The translations under genes and the position numbers were made by a program. DNA of 64,000 nt from Phascolomyces articulosus (Eukaryota > Mucoromycota > Mucoromycetes > Mucorales > Lichtheimiaceae): contig JAIXMP010000002.1 of NCBI GenBank assembly GCA_025677815.1, forward strand, positions 1,984,001-2,048,000, written 5' to 3'. Positions within the stretch are counted from its first letter, which is position 1. Each line of letters begins with the position of its first letter. The notes under the pieces were generated by a model that had not been told where the DNA came from, did not search any database, and saw only the letters and a program-made list of their open reading frames with translations. Shown here in pieces: positions 13,523-44,288 of the stretch.

Positions 13523-16301
13523 TTATTCGGTGTCGGTGAGTGGCTTAATGTATTTGCCGTGGTAAGATGGCACGCCAATACTGTTCTTGGACATAAGTAA
13601 TGTTTCAAAGTAGGCTATATAATGAAGAACACAAAAAGGATCAGTATAAAAATATAATCGGATGTTGATTTTTTTTTTCATTCTTCAAACTTACGTTCAT
13701 AGATATCACCATCATACTTTCCAATGGGTGCCTTCAATACAAAGTCAGGATAACCCCATGCATCGGTCAACCCGATAAGTTGTTTTCGAAGACCCTTTGT
13801 AGTCTATATATCATCCAAAAAAAAATCATAATAAATCAATAAGACTGAGAACAAGATATTTGTAGAGAAGATAATTCTAAGTAATGGATATATATATTTA
13901 CCGCCAAATAAAACTTTTCTACTTGTTTGACTTGTTGAGGTGTAAGGAAACCTTCCTTGAAACCTTGATCACTATAAGTATGCAAAGAATGTAAACCCCA
14001 TAAACCTGTCAAACGACGCATAATTTTGGCAACACCAGGATCAACCGATGAATCAGCCTTGCTATACTTTCCAACAGCATCGGAATACAAGAATGCAGCA
14101 GCATGCATTTCGGCAGCACGTACCGAATCCAACAACAAGTCATTGTGTGTTGCACCTGCCTTTAATTCTTCACGGATAGTGTTAAGCTATTATATCATAA
14201 TAAACCAAATCAATATGTCACATGGGTCCATTAATCATTTCTCCTTGTGAAAAAAAACATTGTGTGTTTCTTCCACCCCACTCAAAAATATCAAAAAATA
14301 GAGAATACATACTCTCTTGACCAAGATGGCATGCAATGCTTCTTCGATCAAGGACAAATCATCAAGACAAGTAGTAACATCCGTGACGTGCCATTGAGGA
14401 ATAGCAAGGTATTCCTTGGCGCGAATAAAGTAATGAGTAGAACTCTTAAACTTAAGCGTAGGATATACATCAAATTCCAATTTTTGTGTCAACAAATGAA
14501 GTAAAATCTTTGCTGTTTGCTGTAACATGACCACATTATCACCACCGCCAGTGGTCAAGACACCCCAATCATCAATGATTTGACCAATGTTATTGTAAGC
14601 AGAATAAGCATGACCACCACAAGCACGTCGACAAGTTTCCAAGATATCGGAACCGTACCAACCGGTAAGACCCTTCATACAAGCAGAGATAGCATGCATA
14701 TCACCCATATGATACATGTACACTTCAGGATCCATATTGCCTCCAGCCGTCAAGATTTTGAATTGTTCATCCAAAGTGTTGGCAGCCGAACGAACCATGT
14801 AAACAAATGAAATGGCAGGTGCAAATTTACCATAATGAGACAAATAATCCATGATTTGTTGGTTTTGATTACCTTGACGACGGACTACACCATAGCGTGT
14901 AGCAATGGTAACAGCATGAGAGACCATCAACATACTGTTCAAAACCAACATGACACGTTCTGGAATCAAGGTAGCATACATTACAACGGGGGAGGGAGCG
15001 GGGGTATAATTGCCTTGACGATCCAAATCGACCCATCGATTCAACATTTGAGTACGTGGAATACGGGTATGATGGAATTGGATCCATCCATTATCTAAAC
15101 CGGACCGACCAACCTTGTGTCCGATATCACCGGCAATAACGTTGGGCATCAATTCACCCGTGCTACGATCACGTAATTGAACAATAAACCAATTGTGTCC
15201 CACATGTTTTCCACCAATATATGTTTGGGCAATCACCATGGTATGAGTAGCGGTTTTACCAGCCATACCAATCCACCATTTCGTGGCAGTAATAGTAGGT
15301 GAGTTGATAATAAATTCATCCATATTGGGATCATAAGTAGCAGTGGTTTCAATATCTCGAAGGGCTGAACTATGACCTAATTCAGTCTATATGCATCACT
15401 GTTAGCAAAAAAATGGAAAAAAAAGTAATGTCGTTGGGAGGGGGGAGTGGCAAGTGTATTGGTAGTTTTTTTTATTACCATAGCAAAACAACCAAAGATT
15501 CTATAATTATCAACGGCATCAAGCCATTCATCACGTTGTTTATCACTACCCAACATAAGAAGCACATTACGGAAAAGCGCTCTATGGACACCAATACGCA
15601 TGGAAAAACTTTCGGAGTAATTCACCAATGCTTGGAAAATTGCTTCTCCAAATTCAGGTCCCTGGCTACGAATCACAGGGTCTTGCAACAGTTTGACAAG
15701 ACGATGGATTTGACCCATTGTGCTGTTCATGAAATAGAAAGTAATGTTTCAATGAGTTTATATATATATATATATATCTTCATTTTATATATGGATAGAT
15801 GTATATAGACGTAAACAGAAAAAAAATATCTCAAAAAATAAGCTTGCTTACAATTCACGCGATTCATCTTTTGTTAATTCTACGAAGTTTCGTGGTGGCT
15901 GTACGACAAGTTCTGGATCGCTCTTGATGAGGCTAAATGCTTTTTGCTAATAACAAATAAAAAAAACGACATATGAATGACAAGTTAATGTTATTAATTC
16001 AGAAGAGAGTGGATAGACAAGATGAGATGAAAGATTGGTTATTTTTTTAAAGATATATATTTTTTACTATTATTCATCCTTATGATTTTACCATGATGAT
16101 ATAATTATTACGACCCCCATGCCAATGATGAGCAAGCGCTTCAATATCAAACTCTGCAGCTACACGTTCAGCAGCCATATCCTTGGGTGCTTGTTGTGAC
16201 ATGGAGGATGGAGTCAAGTTGAGTTGTTGTTTCAACTGAGCTAAACGAGCTACAGCAGCTCTAGCATGAGCATCTGTTGATTGTTGAATAGGAATGGTCA
16301 T
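13523..16301 (-). CDS. Peroxisomal acyl-CoA oxidase (PTS2-bearing)
   Basis: Seven exons on the minus strand: 16092-16301, 15852-15946, 15479-15722, 14313-15386, 13902-14186, 13695-13803, 13523-13614; total 702 residues, the usual length for acyl-CoA oxidases. The family catalyses the first, H2O2-producing step of peroxisomal fatty-acid beta-oxidation with FAD. Visible hallmarks: FGCFAMTELGHSS (flavin/substrate loop), the KWWIGMAG region, ACGGHAYSAYN, and the GDNVVMLQQTAK helix. Residues 19-27 (RLAQLKQQL) fit the PTS2 peroxisomal signal exactly. The C-terminus PLTDTE is not a PTS1. The segment that carries the catalytic Glu in well-studied enzymes (F/W-E-G-D/E-N) reads TTGGGDN here. The exon 3 start (acceptor at 15723-15725) is the least certain junction. 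Confidence 0.92.
16019..16027 (-). other. No separate feature; acyl-CoA oxidase intron 1 interior
   Basis: Marker for intron 1 (15947-16091) of the acyl-CoA oxidase gene. It begins GTAAAATC on the minus strand and ends ATTAG. Nothing else is seen in it. Confidence 0.3.
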
Positions 16302-26782: not shown

Positions 26783-28205
26783 TTACTGGGCTGCTACAGC
26801 AGGTGCTTCAGCAGCAACGGGCTCAGCAGGTCTACCGAAATCTTGGCTGACAGGTTCGCTAATGTAGGTTTCATCCTAATAGAATTATTACATACATAAA
26901 AAGTGTTAATTGCTATTCCTCATTCCTGCATCTTTCTACCTCCTTTTCTATTTTCTCTCCCCAACAAACAACTCCTTTCAAAAAAAAACTATACATATGT
27001 ATATTATATATATAATTTAATTAATCAACATTGTCATCCCCTTTCTTATTATACCTTAGGTTCAAGGATGGTGATAACATCAGGCAATGGGTTCTTGGGG
27101 CCTTGACGACCAGAAGGATCGCTATCCAACATAATCTTGACCTTGATACCAAGAACACCTTGGCGCAACAAGACGTGACGAACAGCGGTGGTGATAAAGT
27201 CACGAGTAGGTTGACCAGAGTGAATCATGAAACCATCACCAAACTTCATGGCCTTTGCACGAGCAGCACGGAGCTTACCAGAGACAACGACTTCACAACC
27301 CTTGGCACCGGACTCCATAACGAAACGGACGACACCATAACAAGCACGACGAACAGCCAAACCGTTCAACAACTTGTATTTGACAGATTCGGCTTGAGCA
27401 ATGGCGCACAAACCACGGTTTTGGACACGTTCGGCGTACAATTCGACAGTGTTTTCGGCGAAACGGAAACGCTTTTGAACGAGAGTGGTCAATTCACGAA
27501 TACGACGGCCCTTTTCACCAAGAACATTTTGGGTGTGAGTAGCACGGATAATGATTCTATCATGATCATGATGTTTCCATATATAAAGTTAATATACATT
27601 TTCCTATCATCCATCTAATGTATTCTTTTTCTGTTCCTTTTCATGTAGTTTTTTATCGTAGTTGACGTTTGCTGTTGTAGGATAATAGAAAAAAAAAAGA
27701 ATAATAATGAAAAACACGTACTCAGTGCGTGCAGGTGTGTTTCTAACTTCGACACCGGCGTAACCGTCTTCAGCAAGTTCGCGGGTTAAGAATTCGTTCA
27801 ATTCGGCGTAGAAAACACCATCAGCGACCTAAGTCATTTAAAATGCATTTTGAATTTTAGTTTCCATGTAGAATTCCATATTTCACTATTTAATTTTGAA
27901 AAGAAAGGCATAAAGCGCAAAAAAACAAAAGAATGCGTTTGTTGCAAGGCCATTCAAAATAGAATAATTTTTCTGCATTTTGGCGGGTATACTTACGAAC
28001 TATAATAACATTCGGAAAATGGAGAAGAGTGAAAATATCGGTTGAGCATATATATTTATAAATTAGTATATCGTCCATTGATTGCATCCATCCGTTTTCA
28101 ATATCCATCTATTCACTGATTCATCCATCGAATTTTGTTGTTTATCCATCTGCTTATCCCATCTACCTTTCTCTTCTTGGAGATCTGAGCGGCAACGGCA
28201 GCCAT
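26783..28205 (-). CDS. RPS3: 40S ribosomal protein S3 (uS3)
   Basis: Component of the small ribosomal subunit at the mRNA entry channel. Exons on the minus strand: 28167-28205, micro-exon 27997-27999, 27722-27828, 27055-27556, 26783-26875; 247 residues. The N-terminus [13 protein letters not shown], the KH type-2 domain ([20 protein letters not shown]) and the C-terminal S3 domain ([36 protein letters not shown]) are highly conserved. Without the 3-nt exon the protein would read KKRKVADGVF, lacking a Phe present in human uS3 and, as far as I know, in eukaryotic uS3 generally (KKRKFVADG). TTC flanked by TATAG and GTAAGT inside the first intron supplies exactly that residue in frame. The Ala/Glu/Pro-rich C-terminal tail is on its own exon. 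Introns were scanned for C/D snoRNA boxes without success. Confidence 0.95.
27997..27999 (-). other. RPS3: Candidate 3-nt micro-exon of RPS3 (one Phe codon)
   Basis: On the minus strand the sequence reads ATTATAG|TTC|GTAAGTATA. Using both sites inserts one TTC codon between AAG (exon 1) and GTC (next exon), phase 0 on both sides. It restores the conserved KKRK-F-VADG sequence. The flanking introns are 167 nt (28000-28166) and 168 nt (27829-27996). The donor is a near-perfect consensus. Confidence 0.75.
28074..28166 (-). repeat. Five GATGGRT motifs in RPS3 intron 1
   Basis: Within about 90 nt after the exon 1 donor, the minus strand carries GATGGGAT, GATGGATA, GATGGATG, GATGGATA and GATGGATG. 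The series stops about 75 nt before the micro-exon acceptor. It could be a chance repeat or a splicing enhancer. Confidence 0.6.
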
Positions 28206-35477: not shown

Positions 35478-35855
35478 AAAATTCCTTATTCTTTTTTGTT
35501 TATATATATCTTACCTTATCTTCATCCCCCACCCCTCTCCCATACACAAAAAATAAAAAGAGAATAAAAGCATATCTATGTCAAGTTTATATATAATACT
35601 ACAGCAAATTTATAATGAAAGGACGGTTAAATTGTTAGCCCTTCGGTGAAATATTCATTCCGAGACTTAAAACTTTTTCCATTCATTTATTTTTTTTGGC
35701 ATGTGAGCTTAAAGAACAATACAGAAAGCGGATTGTTTTTTTTTTGTTTTTTCTTCTCCTCTTCTTCTATTTTCTGTTTCTTTTTCCCGACATTGCTATC
35801 AACATACACGAGGAAGGAAGAACATATATATACAATTACAGCAAATAACATACCA
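35478..35855. other. Spacer: HEM2 3' UTR and promoter/leader of the phosphodiesterase gene
   Basis: AATAAA-like words lie near 35548 and 35560. The upstream ATG at 35646 is in frame with the next gene, but its codons translate T-rich leader sequence, so a downstream start was chosen. Confidence 0.5.
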
Positions 35856-37346
35856 ATGCCACCACAACGACACGATTATCATGATGAAGAGGAAGAGGAA
35901 GAATTATTGTACGACATGAATAAACTGGACCACCCAGTGGGAGGAGGGATAAGACACCACAGTGAAGATGATGATGAATTTATTTATAATCAAGACGACG
36001 CGCCATTACTAACGGATGACGACCATACTGGTTCAACACGAGCATCCAAACGAGGAGGATGGTTCACCACATTACGTCAAAAGATACCCAATTTTCGCCT
36101 CTCCTCACCCTCCTCTTCCATTCAAAAACAATCTTCATCCAGACAACGACCACCACGAAAATGTTGTTGTTGTCGATTGTCTCTTTGTTTAATCATCACG
36201 GCGCTTATGACCGTCGCCTTCTTTATCTGGAGTTTATTTTACTTTTCACCCGCCACGTTACCCGAACCCACGGTTCCCGATAAATCCACCAATACCGACG
36301 CACGATTCCTTACTCTCAATATATTTATGCGACCACCCGGTGTAAAAAACAACAAATCGGATTACAAGGAACAACGGTTGGATTATATTATCAAGTATAT
36401 TTTACCTCATTATGATGTGATTACGATTCAAGAAGCTTTTGCCTTTGCCAATCGAAGGATTGATACATTGCAAGTCGCCGCACGCGAATTAGGATTCAAT
36501 TATCAAGTCGCTTCTCCACGTCATTACCCCTGGCAATTGGCTGCGGATGGTGGATTATTATTGTTATCGCGTTTCCCTATTGCTACTTCCAATGTATTAG
36601 AGTTCCCACGCGGGCTACATAGCGATTGGCTATCGAAAAAGGGTACATTGCATGCATTGATTGAATTGAACGAGCATCGGTCCGTGCATTTATATACTAC
36701 ACATACGCAAGCATCGTATGATAGCAATGGTCAGTTGAATCAAGATGATACGGATATGCGACTCAGTCAATTTGCTTTGGTACATCAATTTATTTCCGAT
36801 ACAGCAAGAGAAGATGGTTCTCCCATTATGATCATGGGTGATTTGAATGTGGATGCTTCCAAACATGATCTACCGAAAACTGCGCATGCAGTCCATAGTT
36901 CGGATGCTTATATCAAAATGGTGCAGATTTTGAATGGAACTGGATTACCGGATGGAACGTACAAGGATTCTTGGCATATTGATACCATGAAGGATGTCGT
37001 TTATGAACAATTTGGATATCACCCTGTGACCTTTGGTAATATCATTACTACCAATACAACATCATCACAACGAGAAGGAGAAGAAAAGAAGGAAGAAGAG
37101 GAGGAGGAAGGGATTATACCCGCTGAAACTGTATTGACCCATTGGGATCAACAAACTACCGTTCAAAGTATTGATCGTATCTTTTGGGCTGATCGATTCT
37201 CTAAAACTATCACCGTTAATAATATCACGATTGAAAAGTTTTTGATTGCAGACAATGATCAATTAACAGAAGAAGAAAGAAAAGACATTGAGTTTACACA
37301 AATATCAGATCATTATGGTATGAGTTGTCGTGTGGAATTAATCTAG
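35856..37346 (+). CDS. Membrane-anchored neutral sphingomyelinase-like phosphodiesterase (DNase I fold)
   Basis: Single-exon, 496 residues from the ATG at 35856. Residues 1-107 are a hydrophilic, acidic cytosolic-type region. A CCCC cluster (103-106, candidate palmitoylation) precedes one membrane segment (about 108-130, LCLIITALMTVAFFIWSLFY), giving a type II anchor. The rest is an endonuclease/exonuclease/phosphatase domain: LTLNIFMRPPG, the metal-binding Glu in TIQEAFAF, THTQA, GDLNVD, and the catalytic His in SDHYG (His486). These are the marks of Mg-dependent neutral sphingomyelinases, which hydrolyse sphingomyelin or inositol phosphosphingolipids to ceramide. A K/E-rich insert near residue 410 interrupts the domain. 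The substrate cannot be read from sequence; another EEP phosphodiesterase is possible. A ceramide synthase gene lies 13 kb further on. Confidence 0.88.
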   Translation: MPPQRHDYHDEEEEEELLYDMNKLDHPVGGGIRHHSEDDDEFIYNQDDAPLLTDDDHTGSTRASKRGGWFTTLRQKIPNFRLSSPSSSIQKQSSSRQRPPRKCCCCRLSLCLIITALMTVAFFIWSLFYFSPATLPEPTVPDKSTNTDARFLTLNIFMRPPGVKNNKSDYKEQRLDYIIKYILPHYDVITIQEAFAFANRRIDTLQVAARELGFNYQVASPRHYPWQLAADGGLLLLSRFPIATSNVLEFPRGLHSDWLSKKGTLHALIELNEHRSVHLYTTHTQASYDSNGQLNQDDTDMRLSQFALVHQFISDTAREDGSPIMIMGDLNVDASKHDLPKTAHAVHSSDAYIKMVQILNGTGLPDGTYKDSWHIDTMKDVVYEQFGYHPVTFGNIITTNTTSSQREGEEKKEEEEEEGIIPAETVLTHWDQQTTVQSIDRIFWADRFSKTITVNNITIEKFLIADNDQLTEEERKDIEFTQISDHYGMSCRVELI

Positions 37347-40386: not shown

Positions 40387-43300
40387 TTAAAAGGTTTCGT
40401 TTTGATTCGGACAATGAATGGTAGTATGTAATCCATATTCGTCACAATTTTCACAATACTAAATTTTATAATGCATCATGATGTTAGTATATAATATGGT
40501 GAGAGTCATCTTTTTTTATACAAAAAAAAATAAAATAAAGTACTTACAGGTCGTTCAGTAGCGGTTGTTTCTTTACTGTTTGTATTATTATTAGTAGAAG
40601 TGGGTGGTAATACAGCTTTGCACGTGTAGATCGTATGGCCTGTCACTTCACAAATTTCACAAAAAGGACCATCATCCGTAGGAGGACCATTACTACTACT
40701 GCTACTACTACTCTTACTCAACGTACTACTACCACCATCCTCACTCTGCTGTCGTTGTTGTTGCTGTTTGAGTGTTTGCTTCATATCCGACAATTCATTC
40801 TTGAGACGACTCGCTTGTTTTCGTTCCTTTTCTAAAGCTTCTTCAAGATCAGCTTCCTTAAAAATCTTGGATTCAATCAACGATTCGAGCTCGGCAATAT
40901 CGCGGTTCAAAGTCGCCACTTGACGTTGATGACCACGTTCTTCTTCGGCTTGTTTTTCCTTGCATTGACGTAATTCCGTATTTTGTTTCACCGTCATTAC
41001 TTCCATTTGACGTTGCGCTTCTGTCAATTGTTGTTGTAAGCGTTCAATCCGTTCTTGATCTGTTTGACAATCATCTAAACCTTGAGGCACTCTAGGTTGT
41101 TCTGAATGTAATTTTTCGACTTCGTCCATTAATTTCATGCATTCATTTTGAACTTGTTTGTGAGTGTCATTCAAAGTATCGAATTCTTTGGCAAGACGTT
41201 TGTTTTCGGATTGAAGTGTATCCAATTGTTTCTTGGTATCTTGAGCGTTACCACTATGACCAGAGGCAGAAGATAATAATAATTCAGCTTGTTGTTTTTG
41301 TTTACTCAACATGGCATTTTGAGCTTCCAGTTTTTCAATTTCTTGACGCAACATGACGAGTTCTTTGGTATGTTGTTCTCGTTCCTTGGTCAAAGAATCA
41401 GTATCAGCACCATATTTACGCAAATCAGACAAAGCAGCTTCAGCACGATTCAAACTATCTTGAGTCGTTTGCAAATCACGTTCGGTCTTTTCCTTGGCTT
41501 CTGTCAATCGACGTAATTCACCTTCGGTCTTTTTCTGACTTTCCACAGCCGTACGTACATCTTGCAAGTATTTGGAACTCACATTTCGTTGTTCCTCATA
41601 ATCGCCTTGTAAACGAGTCGCTTGCTCTTGCAATTTTTCATTTTCCTTGGCCAACTTGTCACTTTGTTTGACTTGTTCGCGCAACTTGTCAGTTTCAGCC
41701 TTGAGGGTTTCGTAAAGAGCTTTTTCCTTAACAACGGCTTGAGCATTCATTTCCACGTTATCCATCAATCGCTTTCGTTCACTTTCCCAAACGTCCTTGA
41801 TCTTTTCCACTTCATCGGACGTATCACGCGCGTTCACCAATTGATCCATTTCTTGCTTCAATTTCGTAATGGTGGTATGCAACTCTTGTTTTTCTTGGGT
41901 TTGTTGATCATTGGCATTGGCCATTTCCTTTTTCAATTCTTCCATGGTGGCTTCATACGTTTCAATGGCTTCCACACCAGCTTTACGCAATTCTTCACGT
42001 TCTGCTTCCAACGAAGTGACTTTACGTTGTTCATCCATCAATCGAGCATTGATAGCCTCCATATCGACTCGATGTAATTCGACTGAACTTTCATACAATT
42101 CAATACTTTCCATACCGGCCTTTTTCAATTCTTCCACGGATTGATCCAATTGTTCAATACGTTTACGATAATCTTCCACATTGGCCGTTTCTCGTTTCAA
42201 ATGTTCCTTGGCTTGATTCAGTTCACTCTTGAGTTTATTGTATTCTTCTTGAGAAGCACAATTTTGATGTTGTAACCATTTTTGTTCTAATTCTTGGACT
42301 TCTTCACGTAACCTTTCTTTTTCACGTTGATGACGATCAGCATCCGCTTTAGTTCGACGGACTTCACGTTCCCGTTCTTCCGCCATGTTACGATGCATTT
42401 CGACTTGTTCGGACAAGGTACCCAAAAACATATCCTTGGCACGCATGGATTCCATTAAAGAAGCCATTTTTTCATGAACTTCTTCCATTTCAATTTCCAT
42501 TTGCATTTGTCGTTCACGCATTTCTCCCGGATCATCGGAATAAAAGTTAGAAGTCGTCATGACATTTTTCGATGCTTGAAGTGCAGCAGCATTGGCTTCA
42601 GCCATGGTCACTTGTTGTTCTAATTCTTGAACACGATGTTCCATATGCACTTTTTCTTTACGAATTTGAGTGACTTGTTCTTGTAATTGATCACGTTCCT
42701 TGATCAAATCTTGTTGTTCTTGTTCCAATTCTTGAACCTTGTGTTCCAATTTCTTGATTGAGGATTGAATATGTTCTTTTTCTTGATCCCAGGATTTACG
42801 CTTTTGTTCATGGTCTTGTTTAATTTCTTCCACAATAGCTTTATGACCTTCTAAAGTGAAATATGATTCATCATTCGCATTGTTATTACCGTCAGTGGCA
42901 CCACCACCTTCTTTGCCTTCGGCTGCTGATTTGCGGAGTACGACCGAACGTTCCAAAATTTGTTCAGCCGTTTTATTTTGTGCATTTTCAAGCTTTAAAA
43001 ATTTATTTTCGGCTTCCAAGACTTCAACACGGACTTGAAGCTGTTGTAAACGCATTACAGCTTCATCAGGAGCTTGAGAAATGGCTTCTCCCAACATACG
43101 TTCCAATCGAGCATGAGGATCAATGGGTTCTTCGTGAGTAGAAGGTAAATTAGCAGGAACAGGAGTATCCGTCAACATTTCATGCATGTCATCATCATAT
43201 TCATCATGTAAACTATGATTCGTAGGTGTCATGGCTGGTGATGGAATACCATCTTGTTGTTGAGGTTGTTTAGAGGGCTGTTGTTGTTGAGGGTGACTAT

Positions 43301-44288
43301 TACTTGTACTACGACGAGTCGGGGTTGGTGATTGAACGGATGAAACGACGGAACGTCGAACACCCGCTGTTGTACGAGTTGATGAACCGGAAGAAGATGA
43401 TCGTTTCGAACGAGTGAGTTGAGAAGCTGTCATGCCTACATAACGTGCAGCACGAGATCCAACACGTTGTTGAGGTGGTGAAGGGGATCGAATACCATCA
43501 TTTAATGAAGCTACTTTAGATGCTTGAACGAAGATACCTGTATCGGGTGGACAAGCAAAATATCGTATGCTAAAATAAAAAAAATGTAATATAAAATATT
43601 TCAATTTAATACTCCTTAATTTTATATATATAAAACTCAGGGCAGAAAAAAAAAGAGCACTATTCGTCCGAGACACACTAGTAAAGATACTTTGCCACAC
43701 ACAAAGTAAGGGAAAAAATAAAAAAAAAACTTACTTTCTAACAGATCCATCATTTTTACCAGTACCTACAATATCTAGTTGAATACCAGCCCAAACACCT
43801 TCTTTAAATTGGGTAGTACCTAAAAATTGTAAGGTACCCACAATACCCATTGAATCCACAGCCACACGATCTCCTAAACGAAGTGAACCACCACCACCAC
43901 TATGACTACGTTGAATAGGACTTGTAGGTGTTTGTTTAGATAAAGGACGTTGACGAGCATTCGTTGGTGTAGTCGTGATAACGGTAGGTTTAGGGGAAGT
44001 GGTAAACGAAGTACGAGGAGACGTCATGGCGGTACCAGCAGAACCAAAAGAAGATAAAGAATAACGTGAAATAGCAGAACTAGGTGATTCCACTTCGTCA
44101 TAAGATGAGATGGAGGTACGTGAAAGACGACTTGATTTTGATGATTTTAAAGTAGGTACGGGAGGTGGTGGCGTTTGGTCCGGATGATGCTTTCTCCGTC
44201 TCAAGTCAAGTGATGGTTGTCGTGAAAGTCGTTTCGTATTTGTTGTAGGCGGCTGGATGCCGCTATTGGCACCGGGTATTCTTGACAT
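40387..44288 (-). CDS. CLIP-170-like microtubule plus-end tracking protein (CAP-Gly, coiled coil, two zinc knuckles)
   Basis: Three exons: 43735-44288, 40548-43569, 40387-40458; 1215 residues. The N-terminal 135 residues are S/P/R-rich. One CAP-Gly domain (about 137-210) includes LRLGDRVAVDSMGIVGTLQF, GTTQFKEGVWAGIQLD and the exon-spanning NDGSVRNIRYFACPPDTGIF; the GKNDG groove binds EEY/F tails of tubulin or EB1. A basic serine-rich linker is followed by about 850 residues of heptad-repeat coiled coil (residues 270-1115). Two CCHC knuckles close the protein: CEICEVTGHTIYTC in exon 2 and CENCDEYGLHTTIHC alone in the last, 72-nt exon. This is the layout of CLIP-170, Tip1 and Bik1, which link microtubule ends to dynein/dynactin and the cell cortex. 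Only one CAP-Gly is present, as in fungal members. Confidence 0.93.

What the first reader, a model, noticed from the sequence alone, without database searches (positions are those of the whole stretch)
27829..28166. A 3-nucleotide micro-exon in the ribosomal protein S3 gene
Direct splicing of exon 1 (…KKRK) to the next exon (VADG…) would delete a Phe present in human uS3 and, as far as I know, in eukaryotic uS3 generally. Inside the intron the minus strand reads ATTATAG|TTC|GTAAGT, an acceptor and a near-perfect donor three bases apart. Their use restores KKRKFVADG exactly in frame. A 3-nt exon is near the lower limit of what the spliceosome is known to handle, and here it would sit in one of the most highly expressed genes of the cell. 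Alternatives: two-step (recursive) splicing, or real loss of the Phe.
Basis: partly seen in the sequence, partly recalled or inferred. Interest (0 to 1): 0.87.

Follow-up and report, generated by a model that had tools for sequence, protein, structure and literature searches.

The report
Three-base exon in ribosomal protein gene
A mould's gene for a core ribosomal protein appears to contain an exon only three bases long that supplies one conserved amino acid; the sequence and a second gene copy support it, and gene models of several relatives seem to miss it.

Summary
In the minus-strand uS3 (RPS3) gene, exon 1 (KKRK) and the next exon (VADG) are 338 nt apart; between them lies AG|TTC|GTAAGTAT, TTC at 27999-27997, giving KKRKFVADG. 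Among the GT/AG two-intron models tried, TTC is the only extra exon that works in both uS3 copies of this genome. The second copy (C16) has the same exon; the 14-nt block TAGTTCGTAAGTAT is the longest exact match between the two introns, whose downstream half is otherwise no more alike than shuffles. AG-TTY-GTAAGT arose in 0 of 20,000 shuffles of each intron. Of 215 listed uS3 homologues, 204 have Phe there; 5 lack any residue and 1 is broken there, all six Mucoromycotina. Three contigs too short for introns, in the Endogone clade, carry Phe; one equals an Endogone model at 242/243 residues except the missing Phe and a 12-residue insert. I conclude an included, probably constitutive 3-nt exon, perhaps old in Mucoromycotina and often misannotated. 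No RNA reads of this organism were available. Ultra-short exons are known (1 nt in Arabidopsis APC11 and Fusarium CYP621A; 3 nt in human RPS24): a new member of a known kind.

The parts
28167..28205 (-). uS3 exon 1 ([13 protein letters not shown])
   Evidence: aligns to uS3 family
28000..28166 (-). intron 1a, 167 nt, donor GTAGAT, pyrimidine-rich acceptor region (0.69 of 42 nt) ending TTATTATAG
27997..27999 (-). 3-nt micro-exon TTC (Phe14)
   Evidence: same in paralogue G000:C16
27829..27996 (-). intron 1b, 168 nt, donor GTAAGTAT (8 of 8 intronic matches to the U1 complement)
27722..27828 (-). uS3 exon after the micro-exon ([12 protein letters not shown]...ART, ends inside the Glu codon)
27557..27721 (-). 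next intron, 165 nt
27055..27556 (-). uS3 main coding exon, 502 nt
26876..27054 (-). last intron, 179 nt
26783..26875 (-). last coding exon, 93 nt with stop
28086..28150 (-). four GATGGAT motifs in intron 1a; three overlapping or close copies in the paralogue's intron 1a; possible intronic element, role unknown

Best explanation
The uS3 gene has an included, probably constitutive, 3-nt exon, TTC, between two spliceosomal introns of 167 and 168 nt. Shown by sequence: the exon has AG and GT signals on its two sides, keeps the frame, restores the residue usual at this place, and is conserved in the genome's second uS3 copy. Inferred: each intron is recognised as its own unit (intron definition) and the two are removed one after the other, since U1 and U2AF could hardly sit 3 nt apart at once (recalled, not tested). 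Either order would leave a normal substrate for the second step. The donor after TTC matches the U1 complement at all 8 intronic positions, the best of the four donors of each gene by that count, which could make up for an exon too short to offer exonic pairing or enhancers. The intron before Phe looks ancestral (five Glomeromycotina gene models break just before FVADG), so the micro-exon may have arisen when a second intron was gained 3 nt downstream in an ancestor of Mucoromycotina.
For: Exact anatomy. Of 40 (window) and 64 (paralogue) GT/AG two-intron models tried, TTC is the only one that is open and keeps SKKRK...VADG in both copies; the only such direct GT-AG join, of 746 and 697 joins tried, drops the residue. 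Paralogue with the same 14-nt block, while intron 1b similarity is no better than shuffles (171 of 300 shuffles reach the observed score) and fourfold sites differ at 35 of 110. AG-TTY-GTAAGT in 0 of 20,000 shuffles twice. 204 of 215 listed homologues have Phe; the 5 without any residue are Apophysomyces, Umbelopsis, Helicostylum, Endogone and Rhizopus stolonifer, and the 1 broken there is Jimgerdemannia, all Mucoromycotina. Three JGI contigs of 967-1041 nt (P0012, P0014, P0015) group with Endogone and Jimgerdemannia (5 rows, support 100/96) and have Phe; P0012 matches the Endogone model at 242 of 243 aligned residues, apart from the missing Phe and a 12-residue insert. Glomeromycotina boundary: P0034, P0041, P0045, P0050, P0117.
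Against: No RNA reads or cDNA of this organism were available. No genomic DNA of another Mucoromycotina could be fetched, so 'same micro-exon elsewhere' rests on protein models and contig lengths; that the short contigs are spliced messages is inferred. 7 of the 13 Mucoromycotina proteins seen have Phe, and I cannot tell whether they use a micro-exon. The two paralogues are not independent. By total U1 matches (11 positions) the micro-exon donor ties with the exon before the last intron in the C16 copy (8 and 8). In the window alone two long internal exons and two AT-AG joins are also open. A Phe-skipped isoform would stay in frame and is not excluded. Four of nine Glomeromycotina proteins seen are intact and say nothing on the boundary. 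Branch points were not identified.
Confidence: 0.93

Rival explanations
1. Real loss of the residue: exon 1 is spliced directly to the VADG exon and uS3 in this organism lacks Phe14.
For: The direct GT-AG join is open in both copies, and five database models of relatives are written this way.
Against: All 209 other listed homologues have a residue there. Three short contigs of the Endogone clade include Phe where two genome models omit it. It leaves the conserved AG|TTC|GTAAGTAT block unexplained.
Confidence: 0.03
2. Regulated alternative splicing: the 3-nt exon is sometimes skipped, giving two uS3 forms, as with the 3-nt exon of human RPS24.
For: Inclusion and skipping are both in frame; the exon 1 donor is weak on its intron side (4 and 3 of 8 U1 matches); RPS24 precedent (PMC11162997, passages).
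Against: Phe stands there in 204 of 215 listed homologues, the micro-exon donor has the most intronic U1 matches in each gene, and the three short contigs of the Endogone clade include Phe.
Confidence: 0.03
3. Recursive (ratchet) splicing at a zero-length site inside a longer intron.
For: An acceptor and a donor lie next to each other near the middle of the intron region in the window.
Against: A zero-length ratchet needs AG|GT; here three bases lie between, and they encode the missing residue. The region is only 338 nt.
Confidence: 0.01

Closest known systems
Single-nucleotide exon of Fusarium CYP621A (Nelson and Syed 2026, PMC12940212; parts 1 and 2 of 3 of the text read)
   Same: Fungal nuclear gene; ultra-short exon inferred because a conserved motif would otherwise be incomplete; missed by gene models; conserved across relatives.
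   Different: 1 nt against 3 nt; a rarely expressed P450 with 18 SRA reads as proof; here a ribosomal protein gene, the exon is a whole codon, skipping stays in frame, and there are no reads.
3-nt exon of human RPS24 (PMC11162997; abstract opening in the listing and passages seen)
   Same: A 3-nt exon in a ribosomal protein gene.
   Different: Alternatively spliced with tissue differences; here apparently constitutive and encoding a strongly conserved residue; unrelated gene and lineage.
Constitutive single-nucleotide exon of Arabidopsis APC11 (PMC4674806; listing and passages seen)
   Same: Constitutive ultra-short exon; its GenBank cDNA was misannotated.
   Different: 1 nt, plant, tested with expression constructs. 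That paper (2015) gave 6 nt as the smallest constitutive and 3 nt as the smallest alternative exon known before it.
Trichoderma Xlr2 micro-exon (PMC11121469; only the opening of the abstract seen in a search listing)
   Same: Functional micro-exon in a filamentous fungus.
   Different: Regulated switch changing a DNA-binding protein.
3-nt exons of mouse Ncam and Drosophila troponin T (as cited in PMC8042270; passages seen)
   Same: Same exon length.
   Different: Animal; the troponin T exon is reported there as skipped in a larval muscle system.

Membership tests
ultra-short spliceosomal micro-exon | internal exon of 30 nt or less flanked by AG upstream and GT downstream | tested here: met
   3 nt, ATTATAG|TTC|GTAAGT
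ultra-short spliceosomal micro-exon | inclusion keeps frame and restores conserved sequence | tested here: met
   KKRKFVADG; Phe in 204 of 215 listed homologues
ultra-short spliceosomal micro-exon | exon and splice sites conserved | tested here: met
   identical 14-nt block in the second gene copy of the same genome; DNA of other species not available
ultra-short spliceosomal micro-exon | transcript evidence of inclusion in this organism | not testable with these tools
   no RNA data; indirect support from short contigs of the Endogone clade
recursive-splicing ratchet point | juxtaposed AG|GT with no intervening bases | tested here: not met
   AG|TTC|GT
eukaryotic uS3 (RPS3) | full-length sequence homology to uS3 | tested here: met
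   solved 40S uS3 chains; Mucorales uS3 up to 94% identity
regulated (alternative) micro-exon | both inclusion and skipping occur | not testable with these tools
   no RNA data

The most novel reading that the evidence does not exclude
A constitutive 3-nt exon in a ribosomal protein gene has been kept since the common ancestor of Mucoromycotina (Mucoromycetes, Umbelopsidomycetes, Endogonomycetes). It was created when a second intron landed 3 nt from an older one, is held by a donor that matches U1 at every intronic position, and a strongly conserved ribosomal residue is missing from several annotated proteomes of the group only because gene finders skip it.
Probability: 0.6. Interest if true: 0.65.

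Novelty: new member of a known kind. Interest (0 to 1): 0.55.

Why it matters
It offers a natural test of how a spliceosome handles a 3-nt exon in a gene that must be spliced accurately and in bulk, in a fungus with introns of 89 to 188 nt in this gene pair. It also flags an annotation error that recurs: uS3 of several Mucoromycotina is recorded without a strongly conserved residue. If the inferred origin is right (an intron gained 3 nt from an older intron), it would be a datable case of micro-exon birth.

Tried and rejected
Relatives' DNA: the uS3 alignment against viral contigs (87 pattern stretches) and genome contigs (306 pattern stretches) gave no relative, as expected for virus and prokaryote collections.

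Synteny: of 265 window reading frames, only those over uS3 itself matched the 40 kb around the C16 copy, so the pair is a dispersed duplicate or an old rearranged one.

Intron duplication as the origin of the two halves: introns 1a and 1b are not similar to each other above shuffles in either copy (169 and 157 of 300 shuffles reach the score). The near-equal halves in the window (167/168) are not kept in the paralogue (188/117).

Other sources of the residue: no direct GT-AG join supplies one. In the window only, two AT-AG joins (adding VDG or VDGISRW) and two long internal exons (33 and 36 residues) are also open; none of the four is open in the paralogue. A narrower scan, in-frame exons of 3-90 nt, found only TTC in each copy.

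The third genome match of the 14-mer (L009) lies antisense within a gene whose exon matches Pfam p450 (E 1.9e-12); I treat it as chance.

Structured RNA: Rfam found 0 matches in the window at gathering thresholds.

First counting scripts: the patterns mis-sorted rows (one search left 9 of 120 unassigned; one search counted the last Lys as part of the residue). I use the recount, which places all 215.

Papers: ten searches of the open-access library listed no title or abstract opening about a uS3 or Mucoromycota micro-exon. Most listed papers were not opened; subscription papers are not covered.

Full report
What is there. On the minus strand the window carries a complete uS3 (RPS3) gene: exon 28205-28167, then 338 nt, then exons 27828-27722, 27556-27055 and 26875-26783. 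Joining exon 1 directly to the VADG exon gives KKRKVADG. Within the 338 nt the minus strand reads TGTTATTATAG|TTC|GTAAGTATACCC, with TTC at 27999-27997. Using it gives KKRKFVADG in frame and a 247-residue protein that is up to 94% identical to uS3 of Mucorales and matches solved 40S uS3 chains.

More than chance. In 20,000 dinucleotide-preserving shuffles of each copy's intron, AG-TTY-GTAAGT appeared 0 times, AG-TTY-GTRAG 1 and 3 times, the loose AG-TTY-GT 117 (window) and 165 (paralogue) times. The 14-mer TAGTTCGTAAGTAT occurs 3 times in 47.4 Mb, its reversed control 0 times; two are uS3 introns and the third is antisense within a P450 gene. The looser AGTTYGTAAGTA occurs 13 times, its reversed control 39 times, so the word is not enriched in general. 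I tried direct joins (746 in the window, 697 in the paralogue; GT, GC or AT donors, AG or AC acceptors) and GT/AG two-intron models with an internal exon of 1-120 nt and introns of at least 40 nt (40 and 64). The only two-intron model that is open and keeps SKKRK...VADG in both copies is TTC. The window alone also allows two long internal exons and two AT-AG joins.

The second copy. The genome has another uS3 gene at C16:512948-514228 with the same architecture: exon 1, 188-nt intron, TTC, 117-nt intron, VADG exon. The coding sequences are identical at 658 of 741 aligned bases and fourfold-degenerate sites differ at 35 of 110. Intron 1b and the last intron show no similarity above shuffles (171 and 262 of 300 shuffles reach the observed score), intron 2 little (9 of 300), intron 1a clearly some (0 of 300). 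The longest exact match between the 338- and 308-nt regions is the 14-mer that holds the micro-exon and its splice sites. Its donor, GTAAGTAT, matches the U1 complement (recalled consensus CAG|GTAAGTAT) at 8 of 8 intronic positions in both copies, against 3 to 6 of 8 for the other six donors; over all 11 positions it leads in the window (8 against 6, 6, 5) and ties once in C16 (8 and 8).

Homologous proteins. Two searches listed 215 different proteins (the best 120 of 6261; the best 120 of 1443, of which 25 were already seen, with the no-Phe model as query so as to favour such proteins). At the position before VADG, 204 have Phe, 3 Leu, 1 Ala, 1 Ser; 5 run KKRK straight into VADG, and 1 (Jimgerdemannia) has a spurious insert ending in Asn. 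The five are Apophysomyces, Umbelopsis, Helicostylum, Endogone and Rhizopus stolonifer. All six exceptions are Mucoromycotina, in the classes Mucoromycetes, Umbelopsidomycetes and Endogonomycetes. Thirteen Mucoromycotina proteins were seen in all; the other 7 (Dichotomocladium twice, Syncephalastrum, Absidia, Phycomyces, Radiomyces, Bifiguratus) have Phe; of these only Bifiguratus was looked up, the rest are placed by recall and by the tree. Whether their genes hold the micro-exon could not be seen.

Spliced sequences. In a tree of 66 rows (64 of the 120 proteins and the two genome copies), three JGI proteins from contigs of 967 to 1041 nt fall in one clade with Endogone and Jimgerdemannia (5 rows, support 100/96): P0012, P0014, P0015. 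These contigs are too short to hold introns besides a frame of 243-250 codons, and all three have Phe. P0012 equals the Endogone genome model at 242 of 243 aligned residues; the model also lacks Phe and has a 12-residue insert that looks like intron read-through. I read the contigs as assembled messages; that is an inference from length. It is the nearest thing to cDNA evidence here: in this clade the mature message seems to hold the codon that the genome models omit.

Origin. Five Glomeromycotina models (P0034, P0041, P0045, P0050, P0117) have unrelated residues or nothing up to FVADG, as if an exon starts at Phe; four other Glomeromycotina proteins (P0011, P0024, P0030, P0074) are intact and do not bear on it. 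The Jimgerdemannia model resumes good alignment at VADG. The genera Paraglomus, Funneliformis and Cetraspora were looked up, the others placed by recall. The simplest reading is an old intron between Lys and Phe and a later intron between Phe and Val in Mucoromycotina, which stranded the Phe codon as an exon. This rests on protein models only.

Mechanism. The signals, the frame and the conservation are shown by sequence. Inclusion in the message, sequential removal of two introns under intron definition, and compensation of the tiny exon by a U1-perfect intronic donor are inferred. A ratchet (AG|GT) is not present. Skipping would stay in frame and is not excluded.

What is known. Ultra-short exons are established: 1 nt in Arabidopsis APC11 (PMC4674806, passages), 1 nt in Fusarium CYP621A, described there as the first such exon in a fungal gene (PMC12940212, parts 1 and 2 of 3), 3 nt in human RPS24 (PMC11162997, passages), 3 nt in mouse Ncam and Drosophila troponin T (cited in PMC8042270, passages). 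Missing annotation of plant micro-exons is described in MEPDB (PMC12409088, abstract). So the kind is known; the gene, the lineage and the apparently constitutive use are what I did not find in ten searches of an open-access library.

Changes made on checking: the last exon ends at 26783 (not 26784), the C16 gene is 512948-514228, the P450 label now rests on Pfam, and the donor tie and the AT-AG joins are stated. None of this moved the odds.

Noticed in passing
window 28150-28086 (minus), intron 1a of uS3; G000:C16:514109-514136: GATGGAT clusters lie in intron 1a of both uS3 copies. GATGGATN{0,25}GATGGAT gives 535 matches in the genome (overlapping ones counted apart) against 12 for the reversed pattern. 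Of 20 open frames from 16 of the 30 fetched cluster loci, 7 had a Pfam match: 3 ribosomal proteins (L23, S12/S23, L7Ae/L30e), NMD3, an alanyl-tRNA synthetase-like frame, She9/MDM33 (at cut-off) and ELMO. Whether these clusters lie in introns was not tested.
   Followed up: partly
G000:C16:512948-514228 (L008): Second uS3 gene copy, no shared neighbours found within the 40 kb compared, protein 98% identical.
   Followed up: yes
database proteins P0006, P0007, P0009, P0078, P0121, P0102: Public uS3 entries of six Mucoromycotina lack the residue or are broken at this junction; likely annotation errors.
   Followed up: partly
window 14238-15386 (minus) and 35631-37343 (plus): Reading frames match acyl-CoA oxidase domains and an endonuclease/exonuclease/phosphatase domain.
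   Followed up: no
window 40509-43730 (minus): A 1074-codon open frame with no Pfam match at E 0.001.
   Followed up: no
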